Positions 2,084 through 28,563 of a stretch of DNA of 35,529 bases are shown here, piece by piece; within the stretch, counting starts at the first letter, position 1, and the number at the start of each line of letters is the position of its first letter. A program made the position numbers and the translations under genes. Below the pieces are notes generated by a model. It ran no database searches, was not told the origin of the DNA, and saw only the letters and a list, made by a program, of their open reading frames with translations. The stretch is taken from positions 1-35,529 of the forward strand of contig JAGCBP010000005.1 in assembly GCA_017652105.1 (NCBI GenBank), in the 5' to 3' direction. Origin of the DNA: Candidatus Saccharimonadota bacterium (lineage in GTDB: Bacteria > Patescibacteriota > Saccharimonadia > Saccharimonadales > Saccharimonadaceae).

Positions 2084-2470
2084 TTAGGCCTCCTCTTTCA
2101 ATTCTAATTTCGCACGGATTTCTTCGAATTCCTTGGGCTCGAGTTCGAGAGTTTTGCCATATTCCCAAGTTTCGTCTAGCGGCATAAGGTGGATGTGGGC
2201 ATGAGGGACATCGGTGCCAACTACTTTCCAAATGGTGCGACTACCAAAAACTTCTTCCATGTGCTTGGCGAGTTTTTTGGCGGTAGCCATGAGGGCATGA
2301 TAATCTTCATCCGCAAGATCGTAGATTTTATCAACTTCGTTTTTTGGAATCACAAGAGTATGGCCTTTGCTTTCTGGGTGAATATCAAGAAAAGCATAAG
2401 TTTTGTCGTCCTCATAAATTTTGTAAGATGGGATTTCGCCGTTTACAATTTTGGTAAAGATACTACTCAT
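2084..2470 (-). CDS. HIT family hydrolase
   Basis: A 128-residue histidine triad protein, the usual size of the HINT/Hit branch that hydrolyses nucleoside phosphoramidates or dinucleotides. The triad HAHIH is at residues 90-94 within VPHAHIHLMP, and the N-terminal fold is typical (IFTKIVNGEIPSYKIYEDD). The start is supported by AAAGGAG a few bases upstream. The gene overlaps the end of the PAP2 gene by 8 bases and ends directly against valS, so it is the middle gene of a three-gene operon. HINT-type enzymes are known to cleave aminoacyl-adenylates, so sitting next to an aminoacyl-tRNA synthetase is suggestive. That functional link is inference. Confidence 0.95.
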   Translation of the reverse strand: MSSIFTKIVNGEIPSYKIYEDDKTYAFLDIHPESKGHTLVIPKNEVDKIYDLADEDYHALMATAKKLAKHMEEVFGSRTIWKVVGTDVPHAHIHLMPLDETWEYGKTLELEPKEFEEIRAKLELKEEA

Positions 2471-2954
2471 TTTTTGCTCCTTTGGTTAATTTTTTGACAA
2501 TCACAAAGTAAATGCCGGCAAAAATTACAGAGAAAATGAGGCCACCAATCACGTCTGAAACCCAATGTTTATTAGCAAGAACACGGCCAATTGGCACAAG
2601 AATAGTAAAGGCCAGCATAATGAGATCTAAAATGACAACAAGATATTTTTGCTTAATATAGCGCGGCAATATAGTGATAGTGCAGAGAAAAATTGTAGCA
2701 GTAATCATAGTGTGGGTAGAAGGGAAGCTAGGTTCGCCGGAGCCATTCGGGCGAGTATTTAATATAAAAACCTTGTCAAAAATTAGCCATGTAGCGACTA
2801 CGAGAATCGCCGGAACGATTAAAGTCAAGAGAGCTTTGTCGATTTTTTTGAAAGATTTGCGAGTAATCCATTGATAAAGAGCTAGTACCGCAAGAATGCC
2901 AGCAGTGGCAAGGGCGGTATACACCATAATATCTGTTATTTTGTCCCAATTCAT
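2463..2954 (-). CDS. PAP2-family membrane phosphatase
   Basis: An integral membrane phosphatase of the PAP2 (type 2 phosphatidic acid phosphatase) superfamily, 163 aa from the chosen start. All three motifs are present: K61-(6 residues)-RP at 68-69, PSTH at 78-81 (the usual form is PSGH), and GRVLANKHWVSD at 123-134 with the catalytic His130 and Asp134. About five hydrophobic segments are visible. The family dephosphorylates lipid phosphates or undecaprenyl pyrophosphate; which one applies here cannot be told. I chose the ATG at 2954 over one nine codons upstream (2981) because a TATAAT box lies 6 bases before it, giving a leaderless mRNA. First gene of the PAP2-HIT-valS operon. Confidence 0.9.
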   Translation of the reverse strand: MNWDKITDIMVYTALATAGILAVLALYQWITRKSFKKIDKALLTLIVPAILVVATWLIFDKVFILNTRPNGSGEPSFPSTHTMITATIFLCTITILPRYIKQKYLVVILDLIMLAFTILVPIGRVLANKHWVSDVIGGLIFSVIFAGIYFVIVKKLTKGAKNE

Positions 2955-2960
2955 AATTTG

Positions 2961-2966
2961 ATTATA
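2961..2966 (-). promoter_or_regulatory. -10 box TATAAT of the PAP2 operon, leaderless type
   Basis: TGCTATAAT on the minus strand. Six bases separate the box from the ATG at 2954, so transcription is predicted to start at the A of the start codon. Confidence 0.7.
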
Positions 2967-3020
2967 GCACAAAATATCCACTACCTTGGATGCAACTTGC
3001 TAGTTTTTTTATTGCGTTTA

Positions 3021-3029
3021 TGCTATACT
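3021..3029 (+). promoter_or_regulatory. Extended -10 promoter of the two large orphan genes
   Basis: TATGCTATACT reads as an extended -10 with a weak -35. It is followed by a leader of about 20 bases that carries AAGAAAGGAAC as Shine-Dalgarno before the ATG at 3057. Confidence 0.6.
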
Positions 3030-3056
3030 TAAACCAATAAGAAAGGAACATACAGG

Positions 3057-4499
3057 ATGGAGGATTCTCGCCAAATACCAACAGATTCAAGCAATGCTGA
3101 GGAAAAAGCAAAAAATTCTGAAGAAAATTCTACTGTTAACAGAGAGCTGGCAAGGGCTGCGATGAAAAACGCTGAGTTGGCAGTTTCTGATATAGAAACA
3201 CACCGTGCTAGCTTTTTTGTCGCTGAGCAACACTTGCCAGCTGAATACATAAATATCATAAGAGATGAGCTTACTCATATTGATGAAATTGAAAACACTG
3301 AAACAATTGAGATGCGCCGTGAACTGGGAACTCTTCCAAAAGATTTTATCAAAACTGAGCATGCGCTTATTGCAAGCGGGATTAATCCAAATCTTTTGAC
3401 TGTCGATGAAGCACAGGGGCTTTATGATTACGCTTCTAATGTCAATCAGGAAATTATCGAACAAAAAGCCGAATCGGTTGCTAATGCGATTGCAAGAATT
3501 CGTAATGGGGCAAGAAGTCGGCGAGATTGGGCCTTTGACCCTGCGAAAGCCGAGCGTATGGATCAACTAGCCAAAAAATATGAACGTTATGAGCGAGGCG
3601 AGATTGATATTGAATGTGGATTCGACAAGGCTTACTATCTTGAAGATGAGAGGAGGGCGGCCGAAGATTTTAATTTTACCAGTGCTAATGATAGAGCTAC
3701 AGAAGAAGGTATGAGGCCAGATGATTATTCCGTACAAGCATATTCTCGTTTGGTGAGAGATATGAAAACGGATGGATATTTGGAACGTGCATTCGAGGAT
3801 ATGGATGTAGAAGAACTGCTTGAAGAAGGCATCATTGAAGAAGATGATTTGTTTGTTTATGGGCCGTATACCCGTAGAGATCTACGAGAAGATTACGGGA
3901 TCTTCAAAATGTCGACCTGGGTTGATGCAGTTAACTTTCGTGACAAATCAAATGTAGCAAATATCCTACAAGAATCGGTCATCGCCAGAAATGAAGATAC
4001 AGAATCCGATCTCTTACGTGAATACGTTGCAAAGGAAATCCTTCCAAATCGTCGCCCAACACCAAAAAGTGAGCTTTTGCTCTTTTCGGCTCTTGGCGCC
4101 GATTTTGCTGATAAAGCAAATGAGGAAATTGAGGCTGTTATGTCAAAAGAAAAAGCGAAGGAGCTTCATGACAATCTTTCTTGGGCCTCTTATTATGCAG
4201 CAAAGATTCTCGGTATGAACTCGGATGAGCTCAAAGAGGAATACGGCTCAACTCGCCCAGTTAGTAAAGAGTTCTTTGAAGAGGTATTGAAACGATCTGA
4301 GGCGCTCACAGAGCAACAAGAGAAATGGATGAAAAAGAATGTTGCACCGTATTTGACAAAGCTTGATGATAGAATATTTATAGCCGAAGCTCTTTATGAA
4401 CCAGTCCTCTCTTCTGAAGACACTGGTAGAGGCTTCGAAGGGCTCGCTCTCCCTGATGACCTTTTTGCGCCAGATGCATTAAACCATGATGGGGAATAA
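3057..4499 (+). CDS. Large acidic orphan protein, 480 aa
   Basis: I do not recognise this protein. It is 480 aa, very acidic, predicted mostly helical and soluble. It has no signal peptide, membrane segment, P-loop or cysteine cluster that I can see. The N-terminal 30 residues are Ser/Glu/Asn-rich and probably disordered. Acidic stretches follow in the middle, around DMDVEELLEEGIIEEDD, and the C-terminus is again acidic. The ATG at 3057 has AAAGGAA upstream. The stop overlaps the next gene's start (TAATG at 4497-4501), so the two products are probably made together and may act together. A cytoplasmic structural or adaptor role is possible, but nothing in the sequence shows it. Confidence 0.85.
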   Translation: MEDSRQIPTDSSNAEEKAKNSEENSTVNRELARAAMKNAELAVSDIETHRASFFVAEQHLPAEYINIIRDELTHIDEIENTETIEMRRELGTLPKDFIKTEHALIASGINPNLLTVDEAQGLYDYASNVNQEIIEQKAESVANAIARIRNGARSRRDWAFDPAKAERMDQLAKKYERYERGEIDIECGFDKAYYLEDERRAAEDFNFTSANDRATEEGMRPDDYSVQAYSRLVRDMKTDGYLERAFEDMDVEELLEEGIIEEDDLFVYGPYTRRDLREDYGIFKMSTWVDAVNFRDKSNVANILQESVIARNEDTESDLLREYVAKEILPNRRPTPKSELLLFSALGADFADKANEEIEAVMSKEKAKELHDNLSWASYYAAKILGMNSDELKEEYGSTRPVSKEFFEEVLKRSEALTEQQEKWMKKNVAPYLTKLDDRIFIAEALYEPVLSSEDTGRGFEGLALPDDLFAPDALNHDGE

Positions 4500-6889
4500 T
4501 GAAAGAGACACTAAATTTTTCAAAAGATAACGAAGTAGTTATCGATGAAACGGAGACTCTTGAAGATAAAGAGGCGCAAGCTTTTAATGCTCAACTAGAT
4601 AGGGGGCTAGATTTTTATTGTCAAATTTCTGGCGAGAAAAAAGAGGATGTAGACATTCACCCCGAACAAGAACTCTTCTTTTCTTATCTAGACAAAAATA
4701 GCCGCCACGAACTAGATAGGACAGTATCAACCCCTACTTTAACTGAATACGGTTTGGCAATAAAAGATAGCGTATACAATTTTACGGATCCCTACAAAGA
4801 ACAGGTTCTTCGTTTTGAGGCAGAGCAAATTGCTCAAGGCTCGGATGATATTAATGCTTTTCGGAAAAATTTAGAAGCATATAGCTTGGATTTTAAAAAA
4901 ATATATATAGAAAAGATTAAGAAGAGCTTCGTATCAAAAGCTCGCGAGCCATTTTTGCTAGAAAAAAGTAAGATTGAAAAAGAAACAAATGCAAGATATT
5001 TGCAGAGAAGCATCGATAAAGTTGGGGCAGAGACTATCTTAGACCGCTATCCAGAAACTCCTTCAGCAGAGGCAAAATTGGTCTACAAAACTATCGCATT
5101 GCACGATAGGAAGATTAGAGGGCTTCGTTCGGAAGAATTTGATTCTATGCATAATTCTGGGATGACTAAGCAAGAGTTTGAAAAAAAGAAAGAGCAGAGA
5201 ATAAAAGCCGAGGAAGCAGATTTTAATGCTTTTAAAGACCGCTACAAATTACAAAATTTGAATGTAGATGAGCTACTAAAGAGTGTCTATGATCTTTTTG
5301 AAAAGGAAAAAACCGAATTTATCACAAATGGTTTTATGACCAAAGAAGAGTATCAAGAATATAAGAATTCTTCACAAAAAATAGAGGCTTTTGTTCTTTC
5401 GATTCGCAACAATAAAGATCTCTACAAAAGAGATGCGAGTGAAATTCTTGATGCATATCAAATGCTTCGAGAATCTGTCAAAGTTAAGCTCGGAAAAGAA
5501 TATGAGCGGGAACATGGTACTGAATTTGATTACCCAGCAAACAAAAAACCTTTTCATTCCCAAAGGCAATCCCAACACAATTCTGCTGTTCGACAAAAAA
5601 AGATGTGGGAAAATGGAGAGTTGCCGGAGGAATTTGCATTTTTGGCGCCTAGTTCAAAGATCCCGCCGGCGGTTCCATCGGTTGAAGAAAGTCGCAAAAA
5701 ACTAGAACAAGTTTTTGAAAAATATTATGATGGGAAACCATGGCCGTTTAGCATTGATGAAGCAATAAATCTTACTGAGAGACACTTAGAATTAGCAGAA
5801 AAATACCGTCGTGGTGAAGTAAAATTTGGGGTAACCCCAACTCATGCGAAACATTATATTTCTGAGGAAAAAGGCAGGCTCACCGAACAAATGTACAAAC
5901 AGACCGAATCCATATCTTATAGACATGCAGAGGAGTCAGCTAATAAGATTGCCAAAAAGCTTGCTTCTGGCGTTTTTGGGATAGATAATACTAAAGAGGT
6001 AGTTTTTACGCCATCAGGTTGTTTTATAGAGCTAGAAAGCGGTACGTATGAAATGAAACCTATATCTCCATTTGATGCTCGAATTGAGACTGCTTTGAAC
6101 CCCGATGAGACAGAGGCATGGGAAAATACCTGGAATACCCTTCAAGCTAATGCGCTTGATGAGGGTGCAAAGAAGGGTAAAGAAAATAAGCTGGCTGACT
6201 TTGTAAATCATCAATTCAGAGAAATGGTTGATGCCTTCTCAGATTCAATCGATGACAAGTCTTTTAGACAACTGCAGGAACTTCGTGAAAAATTCAGATT
6301 TGATATAGCCGGCCTGTTTGATGGCAATTCGAAGATGAACCATTTTCCGACTTCACAAGAAATCCAATTTTTAGGCGAAACTATACCCGGAATAGCAGAT
6401 TTTATTACAGACATTAACTTCAATGCGGTAAAAGATGATGGCCATCACAAAATAGATCTAAAGACCCTTACATCAAATTTGAAAATGGCGATTTGCGGAG
6501 GCAATTATTCATCATTGAATGCTGTGCCGAATGATCTTGTATATATTCAAGATGGTGGAGCAGTACTAAACTTTTTCTCCTATCAAAAAATTCTCTATGA
6601 TACGAATTACGATCACAAGAAGGCTCGCTCTGTTTTGTATTCTTGCCTTGGATACGAATTGATGAGGACATTGGAGGATGAAAAAATTAGAGAGTTTGCT
6701 ACTCTTCTAGGAGAAAAAGCAAATATATCGAAGCAATCTATCTTCCGAAACTACGGAATTGTAGTTGCAAACCCTGCTGAACGAAGAAAAATTGCTATAA
6801 GGACTTACTTTGTGAGCGAATTTAACAAGTTTGCTCTTGGAACAGCTGATGATGATTATAAAAAATTCTTCAACTCGCTAGCAGGCTAA
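4499..6889 (+). CDS. Large orphan protein, 796 aa, coupled to the preceding gene
   Basis: Unrecognised. It is a charged, largely helical protein without membrane segments. The N-terminal 600 residues are rich in Lys/Glu, with coiled-coil-like stretches (for example around EFEKKKEQRIKAEEADFNAF). The C-terminal 200 residues look more globular. There, LGYELMRTL (YELMR at 719-723) follows a hydrophobic GGAVLNFF stretch, an arrangement resembling the HExxH helix of zinc peptidases with both histidines replaced. That comparison is speculative. The start overlaps the upstream stop by one base, so translation is likely coupled. No recognisable partner genes lie downstream; a minus-strand tRNA terminator follows at 6906-6931. 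Confidence 0.85.
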   Translation: MKETLNFSKDNEVVIDETETLEDKEAQAFNAQLDRGLDFYCQISGEKKEDVDIHPEQELFFSYLDKNSRHELDRTVSTPTLTEYGLAIKDSVYNFTDPYKEQVLRFEAEQIAQGSDDINAFRKNLEAYSLDFKKIYIEKIKKSFVSKAREPFLLEKSKIEKETNARYLQRSIDKVGAETILDRYPETPSAEAKLVYKTIALHDRKIRGLRSEEFDSMHNSGMTKQEFEKKKEQRIKAEEADFNAFKDRYKLQNLNVDELLKSVYDLFEKEKTEFITNGFMTKEEYQEYKNSSQKIEAFVLSIRNNKDLYKRDASEILDAYQMLRESVKVKLGKEYEREHGTEFDYPANKKPFHSQRQSQHNSAVRQKKMWENGELPEEFAFLAPSSKIPPAVPSVEESRKKLEQVFEKYYDGKPWPFSIDEAINLTERHLELAEKYRRGEVKFGVTPTHAKHYISEEKGRLTEQMYKQTESISYRHAEESANKIAKKLASGVFGIDNTKEVVFTPSGCFIELESGTYEMKPISPFDARIETALNPDETEAWENTWNTLQANALDEGAKKGKENKLADFVNHQFREMVDAFSDSIDDKSFRQLQELREKFRFDIAGLFDGNSKMNHFPTSQEIQFLGETIPGIADFITDINFNAVKDDGHHKIDLKTLTSNLKMAICGGNYSSLNAVPNDLVYIQDGGAVLNFFSYQKILYDTNYDHKKARSVLYSCLGYELMRTLEDEKIREFATLLGEKANISKQSIFRNYGIVVANPAERRKIAIRTYFVSEFNKFALGTADDDYKKFFNSLAG

Positions 6890-6905
6890 TTACAAGTTAC
6901 CGGAA

Positions 6906-6931
6906 CAAAAAAAGACCTCAAAGAGGGCCTA
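6906..6931 (-). terminator. Terminator after tRNA-Arg
   Basis: Minus-strand hairpin AGGCCCTC/GAGGTCTT with one internal mismatch, followed by a run of seven T. It lies directly downstream of the tRNA-Arg 3' end. Confidence 0.7.
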
Positions 6932-6940
6932 ATTTCAGAA

Positions 6941-7017
6941 TGGTACACCCGACACGATTTGAACGTGCGACCTTTTGCTCCGCAAGCAAACGCTCTATCC
7001 AGCTGAGCTACGGGTGC
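6941..7017 (-). tRNA. tRNA-Arg, anticodon GCG
   Basis: A complete 77-base cloverleaf with encoded CCA. The acceptor is GCACCCG/CGGGTGT (G1:U72), the D-arm is GCTC/GAGC, and the T-arm is GCACG-TTCAAAT-CGTGT. The anticodon stem TTTGC/GCAAA encloses the loop TTGCGGA, placing GCG at positions 34-36. It reads CGC and CGU. Most bacteria read these codons with an ACG anticodon deaminated to inosine, so the genomically encoded GCG is unusual. It is transcribed after a structured leader (7034-7129). Confidence 0.93.
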
Positions 7018-7742: not shown

Positions 7743-8408
7743 TTAAAATGGGACTTTTATTAGGCCTAATGTGTCGACATTGCGTTCTGTTGGAATCGAA
7801 TAATACAAATCATCCGTATAGCGATTGTGTTCGATCCATTGAGGTTTGAAATTGGTTTTTGAGTTGTCCATAGAACTATTAAAACCTCTGTATTTGGCTC
7901 CTTTGAATCTATTGCAGTCTAAACAACAAATTACAAGATTATCTAGACTATTGTCGCCGTCATAATATAGCGGCACGATATGATCTATTTGGGTTCTAGA
8001 ATCGTATAAACTAATCTTTCTGCCACACCAAGCACATCTGCCATGTTGGCATTTGAATTCTTCTTTTTTCCATTTTTTGAATAGCGGTGTTTTCTTTAAC
8101 TCTTCAAATTCTAGGCGTTTTTGTTTCCATTCTTCAAAACCGCTATAGCGCTTTACGCAAGTGCCATTAACCTTAATAATCCCATCGGCTGCAGTAATGA
8201 CTGGCAATTCATAAATCCGAAAATAATCATTAACGAAAAAATTATGCGGTTTGACATGCTCTTGAGCTAGAATTGGGTCTTGATCTGAGTAATATTGGCA
8301 AGCACAGGTGTAATTGTCGGGATATTCGGTGACTAAAAAGTTCCACCAATTTTCTTTGTCGTATTGAGTAAGGACATAGTCATCAACGCCATTAGTGTTT
8401 GGTTTCAT
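7743..8408 (-). CDS. HNH endonuclease domain protein, N-terminus possibly frameshifted
   Basis: An HNH nuclease-type protein, 221 aa from the ATG at 8408. The C-terminal half carries CAWCGRK, then QIDHIVPLYYDGDNSLDNLVICCLDCNRFKG. This is a standard HNH core with two CxxC pairs that would bind structural zinc and the DHI histidine at the active site. The first 90 residues are aromatic and polar and unrecognised. The reading frame continues upstream to a TTG at 8435, but neither start has a convincing ribosome site. A near-perfect promoter instead serves another frame starting at 8502, which overlaps this one. The N-terminus may therefore be encoded by that frame and joined by a +1 shift, or the gene may be damaged. 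It could be a restriction, repair or homing-type nuclease. Confidence 0.85.
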   Translation of the reverse strand: MKPNTNGVDDYVLTQYDKENWWNFLVTEYPDNYTCACQYYSDQDPILAQEHVKPHNFFVNDYFRIYELPVITAADGIIKVNGTCVKRYSGFEEWKQKRLEFEELKKTPLFKKWKKEEFKCQHGRCAWCGRKISLYDSRTQIDHIVPLYYDGDNSLDNLVICCLDCNRFKGAKYRGFNSSMDNSKTNFKPQWIEHNRYTDDLYYSIPTERNVDTLGLIKVPF

Positions 8409-8502
8409 TTTCTTTACGACACCTTCCAAGGGCAATCATCCTTCGGACATTCTCTCGCACTTTATCGGCGGAGATTGTCCCCTTCCCAAAATTATTGTTC
8501 AT
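8392..8502 (-). CDS. Short ORF overlapping the HNH gene start (36 codons)
   Basis: It begins with an ATG six bases after a consensus -10 box and ends at the TAA at 8392-8394, inside the HNH gene. The product starts MNNNFGKGTISADKVRENV and has a helical, conserved-looking centre (ADKVRENVRRMIALGRC). It lies in the frame one base from HNH. It is either the true N-terminus of the HNH protein separated by a frameshift near the A-run at 8408-8411, or a leader peptide coupled to HNH translation. I favour the first. Confidence 0.55.
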   Translation of the reverse strand: MNNNFGKGTISADKVRENVRRMIALGRCRKENETKH

Positions 8503-22536: not shown

Positions 22537-22558
22537 ATTATAACATATATTGTATAAT
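22537..22558. promoter_or_regulatory. Divergent -10 boxes between the methyltransferase and the surface protein
   Basis: Minus-strand TATAAT at 22537-22542 and plus-strand TATAAT at 22553-22558. The two start codons are only 38 bases apart, so each promoter's upstream part lies in or next to the other gene. Confidence 0.7.
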
Positions 22559-22564
22559 ATAGAT

Positions 22565-24688
22565 ATGTCTGCCGAAGATATTTTGAAGGCGAGTGAAAGG
22601 TCTGCAATCACTACTAATGTAACTGGGAAGGCTATTGCTGCCGGAAGCGGTAGCAAGTTTAAGTCCTTTGGAGCGATTGGGTTAATTACCTTGATGATAG
22701 TTGTGTTTGCGATGTTATTTTCATTTGGAAATTTGATTCCGGCGGCGATTTCGGAAAGATTAATTGAGGCGACTGACGTACAATATGCCGATGCAGTAGA
22801 AAGTAAAATTTTGGTTTTTCAGCAAGCCTTAGCTTCTGGTGAAGTGCCGGCAAACACCGTAAAAAGGCTGGAAGCGCAGGGGATAAAAGTAGATGGGACT
22901 AGTCTGATTTTTAAAGGAAAAACTATTCCGGCGGGGAATTTTGTGACTGAAGTTAAAGGCGATATAAATCTCTACAAAGCTTTTACGGCGGCTACTTATG
23001 ATCGAGCGGCATATTATTATGACGAATCGGCTGAGATGGTGTTTAAGAAAATCGGTACGAATAGAGACAATTACACGGCAAGTTCAGATTTTGATGCGGT
23101 GATGACAGGGCTAGTGGGCAAAGGAAGCAATATTAACGTGAGTACTGTAGGTTTGGTAGAGAAAACTGATGAAAAAGGAAAAAAATATACCGAATACGAA
23201 GTAATCGGCGAAAAGGCCAGTTCTGGAACAAGCGCAGAGGAGTTTGTCAAAATGGTGGCAGAAAACAATTTAGATGAGGACGAGGGGAAAGCGACAATGG
23301 ACGCTACGACCGCGCTGAATAATGCCGACATTATGTCAAAAGAACAAAAATCGGCAATTTTCTTTATGGCTTTTATGGAAAATATTAGCAAGATGAAGGC
23401 GGGAGAGGGGAGTAATTCCAAAATTAACGAAGCAATGAATTATCTTTTCCGCGAACAAGAATCCAGTGTAGTAGATGTAAAAACCGGCGAGGAGATAAAG
23501 GTAAAAGGAAGTATGCTAGAATCGCCAAGTTTATACGCGATATTGTCGGGAGAAAAAGTAAACGTAAATGATGTGACAAATTATGCATCGGATAGGGTAC
23601 TGAAAACCGTCGGGAACAAAGCTGGGTTTGATAATGTGTCTGATGAAACGAGAAATAGTACAGTTACCTCTACTGGAGAAAAAAATAAAGGTACTATAGG
23701 AAGATACTTGTTCTCTGGCGAAACAGCGGCAAATTATGATTCTTTGTCGGCAGCGACTCCTACACTAAATAGTTCGCTCGTGGAAAATGGTTTTGAAACA
23801 ATTGGCGGAGTTTATGGCGGTGAAATGTTGGTGGAAGGAGCAGTAAATGTAGGTCGGATGCTGGCAAAAACTAGCGGCTCTACGGTGGGAGATGGAGATT
23901 CGGTCAAAGAATACGCCAAAGTTACTTCTGATATACTAGCAATGGACAAAGAAGTGGATAGGATGAATCGTAGCCCATTTGATATTACTTCACCAAATAC
24001 TTTTCTTGGTTCAATTGTTCATAAGCTAGCTTTTTCTAATATCTTTAAAGTTTTTGGCGGTAGCATGACCACAAAAACTTTCGCGGATAATAATGAAAAT
24101 GACTATCTTACTAGCTTTGGAAACTGCGAAACAATTGGCTCAATCGGTGGGGTAGGGACAGCCACTTGCTCAGAGATTGACACTTTTGATACTTCTACCC
24201 TCAATGATACTTTTCATAACGATGAATTCAATGCTTTTGTAGAAGAAAATACGGAACTGGAGGGAGGGGTTAGGAAAGTTAAAAAGAATTCGGTTCTGGC
24301 AGATTTTATTAAATACAATAATGAGAGAATTACCCCGATCGGAGTGATGGATGGAGGAATCCTGGAAGCGATTTCTAAAGAATCGTCTTCTATACCGTTT
24401 ATTTCTAACATTATATCTCTTATTAAGGCCTGGTTAGGCGCATCAGAAGAGGACAAAGCGATTGCTACTGGCAAAGTATTTGTAAATTCCACTTCAAACC
24501 CAGATTGGGAAAAATACAAATACGCACAAAGATATGTGTCGCTAGCTCGAGCGACCGATGCACTCCGCCAATATGATGGGGATGAAACAGCATATTCTAA
24601 CTTAAAATATTTTGAAGGTTCAGAAAATCCAGTGATTGCATTTCTTACTGAGTATTACAACGAGCTAGCTAATAACTATCGACACTAG
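22565..24688 (+). CDS. Large membrane-anchored orphan protein, 707 aa
   Basis: Unrecognised. About 30 polar residues precede one strong membrane helix (IGLITLMIVVFAMLFSFGNLI, around 36-58). A long Ser/Thr/Asn/Glu-rich region of about 640 residues follows, with little hydrophobic content until a short amphipathic stretch (SIPFISNIISLIKAWLG) near residue 625. Two cysteines in FGNCETIG..TATCSEID could form one disulfide, consistent with an extracellular location. It looks like a surface or envelope-spanning protein of a type frequent in Saccharibacteria. A secretion-machine component is a possibility I cannot support directly. The start is the ATG at 22565, with TATAAT 6 bases upstream. Its end overlaps recF by 20 bases, convergently. 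Confidence 0.8.
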   Translation: MSAEDILKASERSAITTNVTGKAIAAGSGSKFKSFGAIGLITLMIVVFAMLFSFGNLIPAAISERLIEATDVQYADAVESKILVFQQALASGEVPANTVKRLEAQGIKVDGTSLIFKGKTIPAGNFVTEVKGDINLYKAFTAATYDRAAYYYDESAEMVFKKIGTNRDNYTASSDFDAVMTGLVGKGSNINVSTVGLVEKTDEKGKKYTEYEVIGEKASSGTSAEEFVKMVAENNLDEDEGKATMDATTALNNADIMSKEQKSAIFFMAFMENISKMKAGEGSNSKINEAMNYLFREQESSVVDVKTGEEIKVKGSMLESPSLYAILSGEKVNVNDVTNYASDRVLKTVGNKAGFDNVSDETRNSTVTSTGEKNKGTIGRYLFSGETAANYDSLSAATPTLNSSLVENGFETIGGVYGGEMLVEGAVNVGRMLAKTSGSTVGDGDSVKEYAKVTSDILAMDKEVDRMNRSPFDITSPNTFLGSIVHKLAFSNIFKVFGGSMTTKTFADNNENDYLTSFGNCETIGSIGGVGTATCSEIDTFDTSTLNDTFHNDEFNAFVEENTELEGGVRKVKKNSVLADFIKYNNERITPIGVMDGGILEAISKESSSIPFISNIISLIKAWLGASEEDKAIATGKVFVNSTSNPDWEKYKYAQRYVSLARATDALRQYDGDETAYSNLKYFEGSENPVIAFLTEYYNELANNYRH

Positions 24689-25667
24689 TAATGATTACTT
24701 GGTGATTTTTAAAATTACTAACTAGCGCTTCGCGGCGTTTATCATCTAATTCCGAAAAAACATCGTCTAAGAGAATAATAGGTTTTTGGCCGAGCTTTTC
24801 GTTAATTATTTTAGCTTCAATAAATTTGAGCGCTAAAATAATTGAGCGAGTTTCGCCACGAGAGGCAGAGCCATCAGCTAAGTTATGGTTAAAAATAAAC
24901 TCAAAATCATCACGATGGACGCCGAAACTAGTGTGGCCTAGAAAATGATCTTTTTCGTAATTTTTTTCAAGTAAATTTAAATATTCGTTTTCGGTAATTG
25001 TGTCCGATAGGTCGGTAATGTATTCGATCTCTACTTCATCACTATTATCGGCGATAGTATGATAGATTGGGGTGAGGAGCTCATTAATCTCTTTAATAAG
25101 GGCACTACGGAGTTCTTTAATAATAATACCGTTTTTGGCGAGCAAAATATTCCAAGGAAAAAGGGCAGCTTGATCAATTTGTTCTTCTTTTAAAAGCCGG
25201 TTGCGCTGCAATATTGCTTTATTGTATTTATTAATAGCGGAGGCATAATTTTGGTTTAGAACGGAAAAAAATCGATCAAAATAATCTCGGTGACGTGATG
25301 GCGAGCCGGTAATTAAGTTTAAGTCGCTTGGTAAAAATAAGATGATTGGATATTTACTTTTAGCGGGCAAGCGCCGGTTTTTCTTATCTTTAATTTTGTA
25401 AATTTTGGTTTTGCGGTCATAACTTGCGATAATTTCTTCGCCAGTATCATATTTTAGTTTTATATTATAAAAATCCGTGTCTCTTTTAATAATGTCTGGA
25501 TCGGTAGCGCGAAAACTTTTACCTTGGGTTAAAATATAAATCGCTTCTAAGACAGAGGTTTTACCACAGCCGTTTTCACCTAGAATTAATGTAGTATCGG
25601 GTTTTAAATCCAGGTGATATTGCTTGTGATTGCGAAAATTTTTGAGACTAATTGATTTTATTATCAT
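24669..25667 (-). CDS. recF: DNA replication and repair protein RecF
   Basis: An SMC-like ATPase that binds gapped DNA and helps load RecA with RecO and RecR. It is 332 aa, shorter than the usual 360-370. Walker A GENGCGKTS is at 30-38, the signature-like SRGETRSIILALKF follows, and Walker B PIILLDDVFSELDDKRRE is near residue 300. The start overlaps the dnaN stop by 4 bases (ATGA), giving the classical dnaA-dnaN-recF order. It converges with the surface protein gene, overlapping by 20 bases. Confidence 0.96.
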   Translation of the reverse strand: MIIKSISLKNFRNHKQYHLDLKPDTTLILGENGCGKTSVLEAIYILTQGKSFRATDPDIIKRDTDFYNIKLKYDTGEEIIASYDRKTKIYKIKDKKNRRLPAKSKYPIILFLPSDLNLITGSPSRHRDYFDRFFSVLNQNYASAINKYNKAILQRNRLLKEEQIDQAALFPWNILLAKNGIIIKELRSALIKEINELLTPIYHTIADNSDEVEIEYITDLSDTITENEYLNLLEKNYEKDHFLGHTSFGVHRDDFEFIFNHNLADGSASRGETRSIILALKFIEAKIINEKLGQKPIILLDDVFSELDDKRREALVSNFKNHQVIITSVDSY

Positions 25668-27052: not shown

Positions 27053-28408
27053 CTAGTCATAAATTTTGCCCTTAATTTCGTTAATTTGTTCTCGGAGATT
27101 GAAATTTAATTTAAGGTCATTTTTAATTTTCTTAACGCCATGAAGAACAGTAGTATGGTCGCTAACACCAACCTCGGCGGCAATTTTGTTGGTACTAAGG
27201 CTCAAGTCTTCAGATAATAAATACATAGCAATTTGGCGAGCATTTTTAATATTAGCAACACGAGATTTGCTTTTAAGCTCGGTAGGTGTGAGACTATAAT
27301 ATTTAGCGACTTTTTCGATAATACGCTTTGGAGTGGCAGTATGAAGCTTAGGTTCATGAGAGACATTTACAGAGCCATTATTAATAAGTTCTAGTGGAGT
27401 GAGGCCACGAACGTCTGACATCAATAATATAGTGGATAGCTCAGATTCGAGATCACGAATGTTAGTGTTTACATTTTCGGCGATGTATTCGATGGCTTCA
27501 TCTTCGATTTCGGCACCGGTGAGGTTAGCTTTGGAGCGCAAAATAGCACATTTATCCTCGAATTTAGGGAGCTGAAGGTCGAATGCGCCAGCCCAAGTAA
27601 GTCGATTAGCCATGCGTTCGTCTACGGTTTTAATTTCTGATGGGAGACGATCTGAGGTAACAATAATCTGTTTATTTGACTGGTGGAGGTTGTTAAATAT
27701 ATTAAAGAATTCCTCCTGAGATTTTTCCTTATTAACGATGAGTTGGAAATCATCAATAATTAAAACATCTAAAGAACGGAATTTAGTGCTAAATTCTTTG
27801 CCTTTACCTTTTAAGACGGAATCTACGAAATCGGCGTAAAAATCAGAAATCGGGGTATAGAGAACTTTAAAGTCTGGATGATTTTTTAAGATTTCATTAC
27901 CAATAGCCTGAATTAAATGAGTTTTGCCAAGCCCGGAGCCGCCATAAAGGAAAAAAGGATTATATGAAGTGCCAGGGTTATTAATAATACTTTTGGCAGC
28001 AGCGACCGCTAGGTCGTTGTTAGAGCCGATAACGAAATTATCTAAAGTGTATTTAGGGTTGAGACCGGTTTTTTGGTTTTTGGTGGCTTTTAGGGAATTA
28101 AGCGAAGGAAGCTTTTGTTTGACAGAAACAAAGCTAGTAATTTCACGGGGATGAACTTTGGACTTTGACTTATTTTCTATTTTAAAGTCAATATCTTTAA
28201 CTTTTATATCGTTGTTAATAAGGGCTTCTTTGATAATGTCTAAGAATTTGGAGCGAAGCTGTTTAATAAAAAAGGAATTTTTAACACCGATGATGATATG
28301 GCCGTCGTCAGTGGAAATAAGAGAAGTATCATGGAACCAGGTGGAAAAATTACTAGAAGAGATTTTTTGCTCGATCTCAGCTAAGACGTTTTCCCACACG
28401 TTGTACAT
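27053..28408 (-). CDS. dnaA: Chromosomal replication initiator DnaA
   Basis: Binds DnaA boxes and melts the origin. It is 451 aa. Domain I is at the N-terminus (WENVLAEIEQKISSSNFSTWF), followed by a short linker. The AAA+ domain has Walker A GGSGLGKTH at 156-164 and Walker B VLIIDDFQ. Domain IV is the DNA-binding domain with KSRVANIKNARQIAMYL and the signature DHTTVLHGVKKI. The ATG at 28408 is preceded by AAAGGAGG and a TGC-TATAAT promoter (28430-28435); a longer frame to 28540 crosses that promoter and the DnaA boxes and is rejected. Confidence 0.98.
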   Translation of the reverse strand: MYNVWENVLAEIEQKISSSNFSTWFHDTSLISTDDGHIIIGVKNSFFIKQLRSKFLDIIKEALINNDIKVKDIDFKIENKSKSKVHPREITSFVSVKQKLPSLNSLKATKNQKTGLNPKYTLDNFVIGSNNDLAVAAAKSIINNPGTSYNPFFLYGGSGLGKTHLIQAIGNEILKNHPDFKVLYTPISDFYADFVDSVLKGKGKEFSTKFRSLDVLIIDDFQLIVNKEKSQEEFFNIFNNLHQSNKQIIVTSDRLPSEIKTVDERMANRLTWAGAFDLQLPKFEDKCAILRSKANLTGAEIEDEAIEYIAENVNTNIRDLESELSTILLMSDVRGLTPLELINNGSVNVSHEPKLHTATPKRIIEKVAKYYSLTPTELKSKSRVANIKNARQIAMYLLSEDLSLSTNKIAAEVGVSDHTTVLHGVKKIKNDLKLNFNLREQINEIKGKIYD

Positions 28409-28429
28409 TTTTAGACCTCCTTTTCTAGT

Positions 28430-28458
28430 ATTATAGCAAAAAAGTTGAAAGTTTTCCA
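28430..28458 (-). promoter_or_regulatory. dnaA promoter with a DnaA box over its -35
   Basis: Minus strand TGGAAA (28453-28458), a 17-base spacer, TATAAT (28430-28435). The -35 lies inside the DnaA box at 28452-28460, which would allow autorepression. Confidence 0.7.
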
Positions 28459-28563
28459 CAGATTTTGGTGGTAGAAAAATGTTTTTTAATATGTAAAAAT
28501 TAAAACAGGGGTAGAGATTTCCACATTTTTGAGGGTTCACCTATTGAGTGTGTGGAAAAGTCT

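What the first reader, a model, noticed from the sequence alone, without database searches (positions are those of the whole stretch)
3057..6889. Coupled pair of large soluble orphan proteins
Two proteins of 480 and 796 aa overlap at TAATG and share one promoter, filling 3.8 kb of a compact genome, yet neither shows a recognisable domain. The second carries YELMR at 719-723 after a beta-like GGAVLNFF stretch, resembling a zinc-peptidase helix that lost its histidines. Such a costly pair in a reduced genome should have an important lineage-specific role.
Basis: partly seen in the sequence, partly recalled or inferred. Interest (0 to 1): 0.55.

Follow-up and report, generated by a model that had tools for sequence, protein, structure and literature searches.

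The report
Mobile two-gene orphan module in Saccharibacteria
Two large, tightly linked genes of unknown family sit at different places in a few percent of related tiny epibiont bacteria, always together and changing far faster than their neighbours, which fits an optional conflict or defence module better than a core function.

Summary
The pair is real: A (3057-4499, 480 aa) and B (4499-6889, 796 aa) share one base at TAATG. The genome belongs to the Ca. Nanosyncoccus group of Saccharibacteria. No Pfam, NCBIfam, PHROG, PADLOC or PDB-profile family explains either. Both profiles hit the same 8 of 174 genus genomes; 13 loci in 5 genera of the family carry the pair, always A then B. It is not a core function: 166 of 174 genus genomes show no detectable pair. 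It occupies at least seven different sites, and most relatives show PAP2 next to tRNA-Arg, the site it fills here. At shared sites A and B are 27-45% identical, flanking proteins 77-96%. One A is frameshifted; one genome keeps only a B relic. A models as an acidic all-helical protein, B as an arm plus a conserved C-terminal domain. The 'lost zinc-peptidase helix' fails: YELMR is unique to this copy and no member has HExxH. A weak fold match of B's C-terminus to anthrax lethal factor domain I (Z 6.5) is only a lead. Best reading: a mobile, fast-evolving, cytoplasmic two-protein conflict (defence or addiction) module; function untested.

The parts
3057..4499 (+). gene A: 480-aa acidic (pI 4.55), predicted all-helical protein
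   Evidence: ORF; homologues in 11 other genomes plus one frameshifted copy; AlphaFold pLDDT 76.6, pTM 0.69
4499..6889 (+). gene B: 796-aa protein with N-terminal beta hairpin, long helical arm and conserved C-terminal domain
   Evidence: ORF; homologues in 12 other genomes; AlphaFold pLDDT 80.3, pTM 0.59
4497..4501 (+). TAATG stop/start overlap that couples A and B
   Evidence: sequence; the same 1-nt overlap is possible in G001, G052, G171, G189 and G144; in all 13 loci the distance from A stop to B start runs from a 29-nt overlap to a gap of a few bases
3858..3872 (+). A: YGP[FY]T motif (residues 268-272), the best conserved stretch with 316-333
   Evidence: Y268 and G269 in 11 of 12, T272 in 12 of 12
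4002..4055 (+). A: E-x-D-L-L...E...R-R helix (residues 316-333)
   Evidence: L319 in 12 of 12, E327 and R333 in 11 of 12
4688..4783 (+). B residues 64-95, predicted beta hairpin with invariant G85
4850..5977 (+). B residues 118-493, long helical arm, length-variable among relatives
   Evidence: model and alignment; B length runs from 638 to 1161 aa
5978..6886 (+). B residues 494-796, conserved C-terminal alpha/beta domain (PTG-type 505-507, WxxxW 541-545, R762, R768, F771)
6653..6667 (+).
   Evidence: alignment of 13 C-termini
2982..3056 (+). left junction and leader: extended -10-like TGCTATACT (3021-3029) and AAGGAA; promoter unproven
   Evidence: sequence; no consensus hit; left edge of the insertion not resolved
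6890..6940 (-). right junction: from about 6897 the sequence matches the empty site of relatives; terminator-like hairpin 6930-6913 on the - strand follows tRNA-Arg
6941..7017 (-). tRNA-Arg(gcg), right flank of the insertion, 3' end facing it
   Evidence: the neighbour of PAP2 in 24 of 29 relatives' loci
2463..2981 (-). PAP2-like 172-aa protein, left flank of the insertion (the name PAP2 is my reading)

Best explanation
A and B are one obligate two-gene module, made as a translation-coupled cytoplasmic pair and carried as an optional, mobile cassette by a minority of one Saccharibacteria family. Shown: adjacency, order and overlap; patchy presence; different insertion sites, with empty sites in relatives; very fast protein change; decay in two genomes. 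Inferred: the module is kept by conflict, either with phages or other mobile DNA or as an addiction pair. In this reading B, with its long helical arm and the only strongly conserved domain at its C-terminus, is the sensor or effector, and the acidic helical A is its partner or antidote. New copies would arrive by DNA uptake and recombination, since no recombinase travels with the pair; competence has been shown experimentally in Saccharibacteria (PMC10633639, passages read).
For: Both profiles hit the same 8 of 174 genus genomes. In 13 of the 15 family genomes with a B match, A lies directly upstream. Sites: PAP2/tRNA-Arg (window); mnmA/alaS (G001, G144, G189); fusA/tuf (G052); murA/a UvrD-like helicase gene (G166); parAB region (G171); obg/gpmI region (G472, G567); others. 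Empty sites: tRNA-Arg lies next to PAP2 in 24 of 29 relatives' loci, 16 of them with gaps under 200 bp, against 3,959 bp here; mnmA is followed by alaS in 15 of 30 loci, including the window's own genome. Rate: dN 0.57-0.58 (A) and 0.79-0.84 (B) against 0.02-0.14 for flanking genes at shared sites. The pair is more than 2 points lower in G+C than its surroundings in 8 of 12 loci. Decay: frameshifted A in G181; a B relic of about 45 codons in G564. No long hydrophobic stretch in 12 A or 13 B proteins.
Against: No known defence, toxin or enzyme domain: PADLOC, Pfam, NCBIfam and PDB profiles gave nothing shared. No catalytic motif. No match in phage, plasmid or viral-contig collections. Horizontal transfer is only weakly supported by trees (AU p 0.024-0.048 for B; A compatible with descent), and long branches are in play. 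Fast change plus loss could also come from weak constraint. In the window itself the pair's G+C is not unusual.
Confidence: 0.4

Rival explanations
1. A and B are a chaperone and exported protein (or two exported proteins) used on the bacterial host cell, sent out by the type IV secretion or pilus machinery of these epibionts; fast change reflects the host arms race.
For: Chaperones upstream of their substrates are often acidic and helical (recalled); A has pI 4.55-4.90 in 12 of 12 members. The acidic C-terminal tail of A is similar in six genus members. Fast change and patchiness also fit host-range genes.
Against: No membrane-like stretch and, by eye, no signal peptide. A is far larger than usual chaperones (recalled). 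No secretion gene is shared by the neighbourhoods. The conserved tail of A also encodes the stretch just before the B start, which alone could explain it.
Confidence: 0.2
2. An ordinary accessory pair without conflict: a structural or scaffolding two-protein complex inherited by descent, rearranged with its chromosome neighbourhood and repeatedly lost, changing fast because constraint is weak.
For: The A tree is compatible with descent. The same site is kept within genus g47 and by three Nanosyncoccus species. B is largely helical arm, and coiled-coil proteins drift quickly (recalled). No effector domain.
Against: Flank comparison shows discrete presence at sites that are closed in relatives. 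The frames stay open at 27-45% identity, with conserved columns, in 12 of 13 A loci and 13 of 13 B loci.
Confidence: 0.3
3. The C-terminal 200 residues of B are a dead relative of the anthrax-lethal-factor/M34 peptidase fold, so B works by binding a peptide or partner.
For: VIA-align: B 590-796 against lethal factor 31-249, Z 6.2-6.5, rmsd 5.4-6.1, 153-163 aligned, spanning a whole domain.
Against: Z below 8 and within 1 of unrelated helical rows; all rows are one protein; no Foldseek match at E 0.001; no lethal-factor family among the 25 of 26 Pfam families shown for 13 members; no such chain in the PDB profile search.
Confidence: 0.07

Closest known systems
Type II-style toxin-antitoxin or toxin-antidote gene pairs (kind, not family; from memory)
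   Same: two overlapping genes, always together, patchy, at different chromosome sites, fast evolving
   Different: both proteins are large; no DNA-binding antitoxin domain; no known toxin fold; toxicity untested
Anti-phage defence modules listed in PADLOC (for example Lamassu LmuB, Wadjet JetC)
   Same: accessory, mobile, AT-leaning in most loci; B has a long helical arm as these coiled-coil proteins do
   Different: only the coiled-coil parts of two B proteins score (LmuB and JetC in G472; LmuB and PDC-S15 weakly in G468); no ATPase or nuclease; A matches nothing
Anthrax lethal factor domain I / M34-like fold
   Same: weak whole-domain structural match of B 590-796
   Different: no sequence similarity, no HExxH in any member, Z in the noise range

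Membership tests
two-gene toxin-antitoxin kind | adjacent, co-oriented, overlapping gene pair that co-occurs | tested here: met
   A directly upstream of B in 13 loci; same 8 of 174 genomes
two-gene toxin-antitoxin kind | mobile, patchy distribution | tested here: met
   8 of 174 in the genus; at least seven sites; closed sites in relatives
two-gene toxin-antitoxin kind | known antitoxin DNA-binding domain or known toxin domain | tested here: not met
   no Pfam family in more than one of 12 A or 13 B members among the families shown
two-gene toxin-antitoxin kind | one protein toxic, the other neutralises it | not testable with these tools
   needs expression
known anti-phage defence system (PADLOC models) | match to a model outside coiled-coil regions | tested here: not met
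   0 of 3 A and 0 of 3 B proteins at E 1; 2 A and 4 B proteins at E 0.1: only coiled-coil-type hits in two B proteins
M34 / anthrax-lethal-factor-like peptidase | HExxH zinc motif | tested here: not met
   none in 12 A or 13 B proteins; YELMR not conserved
M34 / anthrax-lethal-factor-like fold | same fold | tested here: inconclusive
   Z 6.2-6.5, below the reliable range; absent from the Foldseek rows shown
phage or plasmid cargo | relatives in phages, viral contigs or plasmids | tested here: inconclusive
   no match; such fast-evolving proteins could be missed
type IV secretion effector with chaperone | export by the secretion system | not testable with these tools
   no membrane-like stretch; export signals cannot be tested here

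The most novel reading that the evidence does not exclude
A previously undescribed two-protein immune or addiction system peculiar to Saccharibacteria, built of two protein families without known relatives and spreading between chromosome sites of obligate epibionts without its own recombinase.
Probability: 0.3. Interest if true: 0.72.

Novelty: new variant of a known kind. Interest (0 to 1): 0.45.

Why it matters
If it is a conflict module, it shows that bacteria with 0.7-Mb genomes still pay 3.8 kb for an optional weapon or shield. It would also give a defined, testable pair for the little-studied wars between epibionts, their phages and their hosts. The pair is also a clean case of two orphan families that can be tested for binding and activity straight away.

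Tried and rejected
Family libraries on single proteins and on whole alignments gave no shared family. Single-member hits (CTD10 0.0015, Rad50 2.7e-6, Pas_Saposin 0.0022) were set aside as coiled-coil or chance.

PDB profile searches gave only terpene synthases, GrpB, MazE6, eL14 and the like at E 0.01 or worse. Fold searches: for A the best Z was 5.4, to helical chains; for B coiled coils and the lethal factor lead; the viral library gave mostly coiled coils.

A 1340-aa orphan at the mnmA-alaS site of G009 was tested as a fused A-B. It is not related.

Tree-based transfer: weak, not relied on. Rows left out: G181 A (frameshifted); G507 (contig starts inside B); G564 (relic); G171 alaS (partial) and G468 alaS (no match) in the alaS tree. 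The A hit in G457 (E 0.006) lies at a region of ordinary genes with no B and was judged chance. The G288 hit (E 0.005, 37 positions, stop inside) was judged chance.

In one search the G144 alaS frame was cut wrongly (26-28% identity, spurious). It was dropped and replaced.

A in G491 is only a weak homologue (E 5e-4 with 5000 sequences assumed). It is counted as A mainly by position.

Literature: (listings and abstract starts only) showed nothing on this pair. PMC10633639 was read in passages. That is no proof that nothing is in print.

Full report
WHAT IS THERE. Gene A (3057-4499) and gene B (4499-6889) are open, adjacent and share one base at TAATG. Upstream is a divergent PAP2-like gene. 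Downstream is tRNA-Arg(gcg) on the other strand, its 3' end facing B. A shared promoter is plausible but unproven: the scan found none in the leader, while by eye there is an extended -10-like TGCTATACT at 3021-3029. The genome (668,009 bases in 21 contigs) lies in the same genus as Ca. Nanosyncoccus alces and gut genomes of yak and sheep labelled Saccharibacteria.

FAMILY. No Pfam, NCBIfam, PHROG or PADLOC model reaches a meaningful score. Among the families shown, none matches more than one of 13 B or 12 A members (NCBIfam was run on B only). Profiles of both find no relative among PDB sequences. tblastn finds nothing in phage or plasmid records, and two scans of viral contigs found none.

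DISTRIBUTION. Profiles of three A or three B proteins hit the same 8 of 174 genus genomes. A refined A profile over 392 genomes of the order hit 8: four of the genus, three from other genera of the same family (G331, G468, G472) and one chance hit (judged). A refined B profile over 394 genomes of the family hit 15. Thirteen carry A directly upstream. In G507 the contig starts inside B. G564 keeps only a B relic of about 45 codons, with no A in the 4 kb examined. A C-terminal B profile over 379 Patescibacteria genomes found only the window's own genome plus one chance hit. So the pair is confined, as far as tested, to one family, is rare there, and has no intact solo partner apart from B beside a frameshifted A in G181. 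A of G491 is a weak homologue (E 5e-4).

COUPLING. In all 13 loci the distance between A stop and B start is small: the 1-nt TAATG overlap is possible in six, and others overlap by up to 29 nt or leave a gap of a few bases. In several members the last codons of A carry a purine-rich stretch just before the B start, which may be its ribosome-binding site. That could also explain the similar acidic tail of A (inference).

SITES. The pair sits between PAP2 and tRNA-Arg here, mnmA and alaS in G001, G144 and G189, fusA and tuf in G052, murA and a helicase gene in G166, next to parAB in G171, in the obg-gpmI region in the sister pair G472/G567, and elsewhere in G181, G331, G468 and G491 (gene names are my reading of the translations). 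Of 30 PAP2 loci held, one is the window's own. Of the other 29, 24 have the same tRNA-Arg within 1.5 kb on the same side, 16 with gaps of 30-193 bp. In the window the gap is 3,959 bp. The two closest relatives share the stretch that begins about 7 bases after the B stop, so the right edge of the insertion is there; the left edge is not resolved. Of 30 mnmA loci held, out of 58 genomes with a match, 15 have alaS next downstream, the window's own genome among them. Fourteen longer stretches show that other genes occupy this spot in other species. No recombinase was seen to travel with the pair.

RATE. Where pairs share a site, flanking proteins are 77-96% identical, A 36-45% and B 27-30%. dN is 0.57-0.58 for A and 0.79-0.84 for B against 0.02-0.14 for flanks. 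Synonymous sites are saturated, so selection cannot be read from dN/dS. On trees the G472-G567 path is 0.07 for alaS, 1.17 for A and 2.32 for B. B groups the window's copy with genus g47 (94/93), against the species grouping by alaS (99/99). Holding the genus together in B is only weakly rejected (AU p 0.048 with G181, 0.036 without), and A does not conflict. Transfer is thus indicated mainly by sites, not by trees.

STRUCTURE. A: pLDDT 76.6, pTM 0.69, all helical, disordered at both ends. It is acidic in 12 of 12 members, pI 4.55-4.90. B: pLDDT 80.3, pTM 0.59, a hairpin at 64-95, a helical arm to about 493 and a C-terminal alpha/beta domain holding most of the conserved columns. The arm varies in length: B is 638-1161 aa. 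No PDB chain matches A or B at E 0.001. VIA-align puts anthrax lethal factor domain I first for B 590-796 at Z 6.2-6.5, level with helical rows and below the tool's reliable range. I treat it as a lead only.

YELMR exists at 719-723 but the 12 other B proteins have other residues there, and no member has HExxH. It is not a peptidase signature.

MECHANISM. Obligate pairing, optional carriage, many sites, rapid change and decay together fit a conflict module best. I give 0.4 to that reading, 0.3 to a non-conflict accessory complex and 0.2 to a host-directed exported pair. Effector and partner roles are inferred, not shown. Competence in Saccharibacteria, a possible route of spread, is reported in PMC10633639 (passages seen).

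VERDICT. A genuine orphan two-gene module, lineage-restricted and mobile, not essential to its genus. The families are new to the libraries used; the kind of behaviour is known. Interest 0.45.

Noticed in passing
L010:9317-9540 (G001, Ca. Nanosyncoccus alces): A run of nine G splits a plausible start region of A from the main A frame; either an assembly error or a slippage (phase-variation) tract. No other pair has a G run of 7 or more.
   Followed up: partly
L124 1395-1501; L126 1995-2149; L147 1376-1501 (PAP2/tRNA-Arg gaps of G007, G009, G048): The gap beside tRNA-Arg(gcg) holds partial copies of the tRNA 3' end, as left by elements that integrate at tRNA genes.
   Followed up: no
L152:4793-8815 (G009): At the mnmA-alaS spot another species has a 1340-aa orphan with a nucleotidyltransferase-like GSTGRDSN...GDGDFD stretch (my reading); unrelated to A and B.
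   Followed up: partly
L025:6697-8317 (G181): A is broken by a frameshift while B stays open (818-residue open frame), an early stage of decay or an assembly error.
   Followed up: partly
L069 about 5900-6150 (G564): A B relic of about 45 codons remains, with no A nearby.
   Followed up: yes
window 22550-24688: Another large orphan frame, 712 aa, without any Pfam match at E 0.01, next to a RecF/SMC-like gene (24669-25667) and not far from dnaA (27053-28540).
   Followed up: no
window 7743-8435: HNH endonuclease-type protein a short way downstream of the pair; its PADLOC similarity is to the HNH part only.
   Followed up: partly
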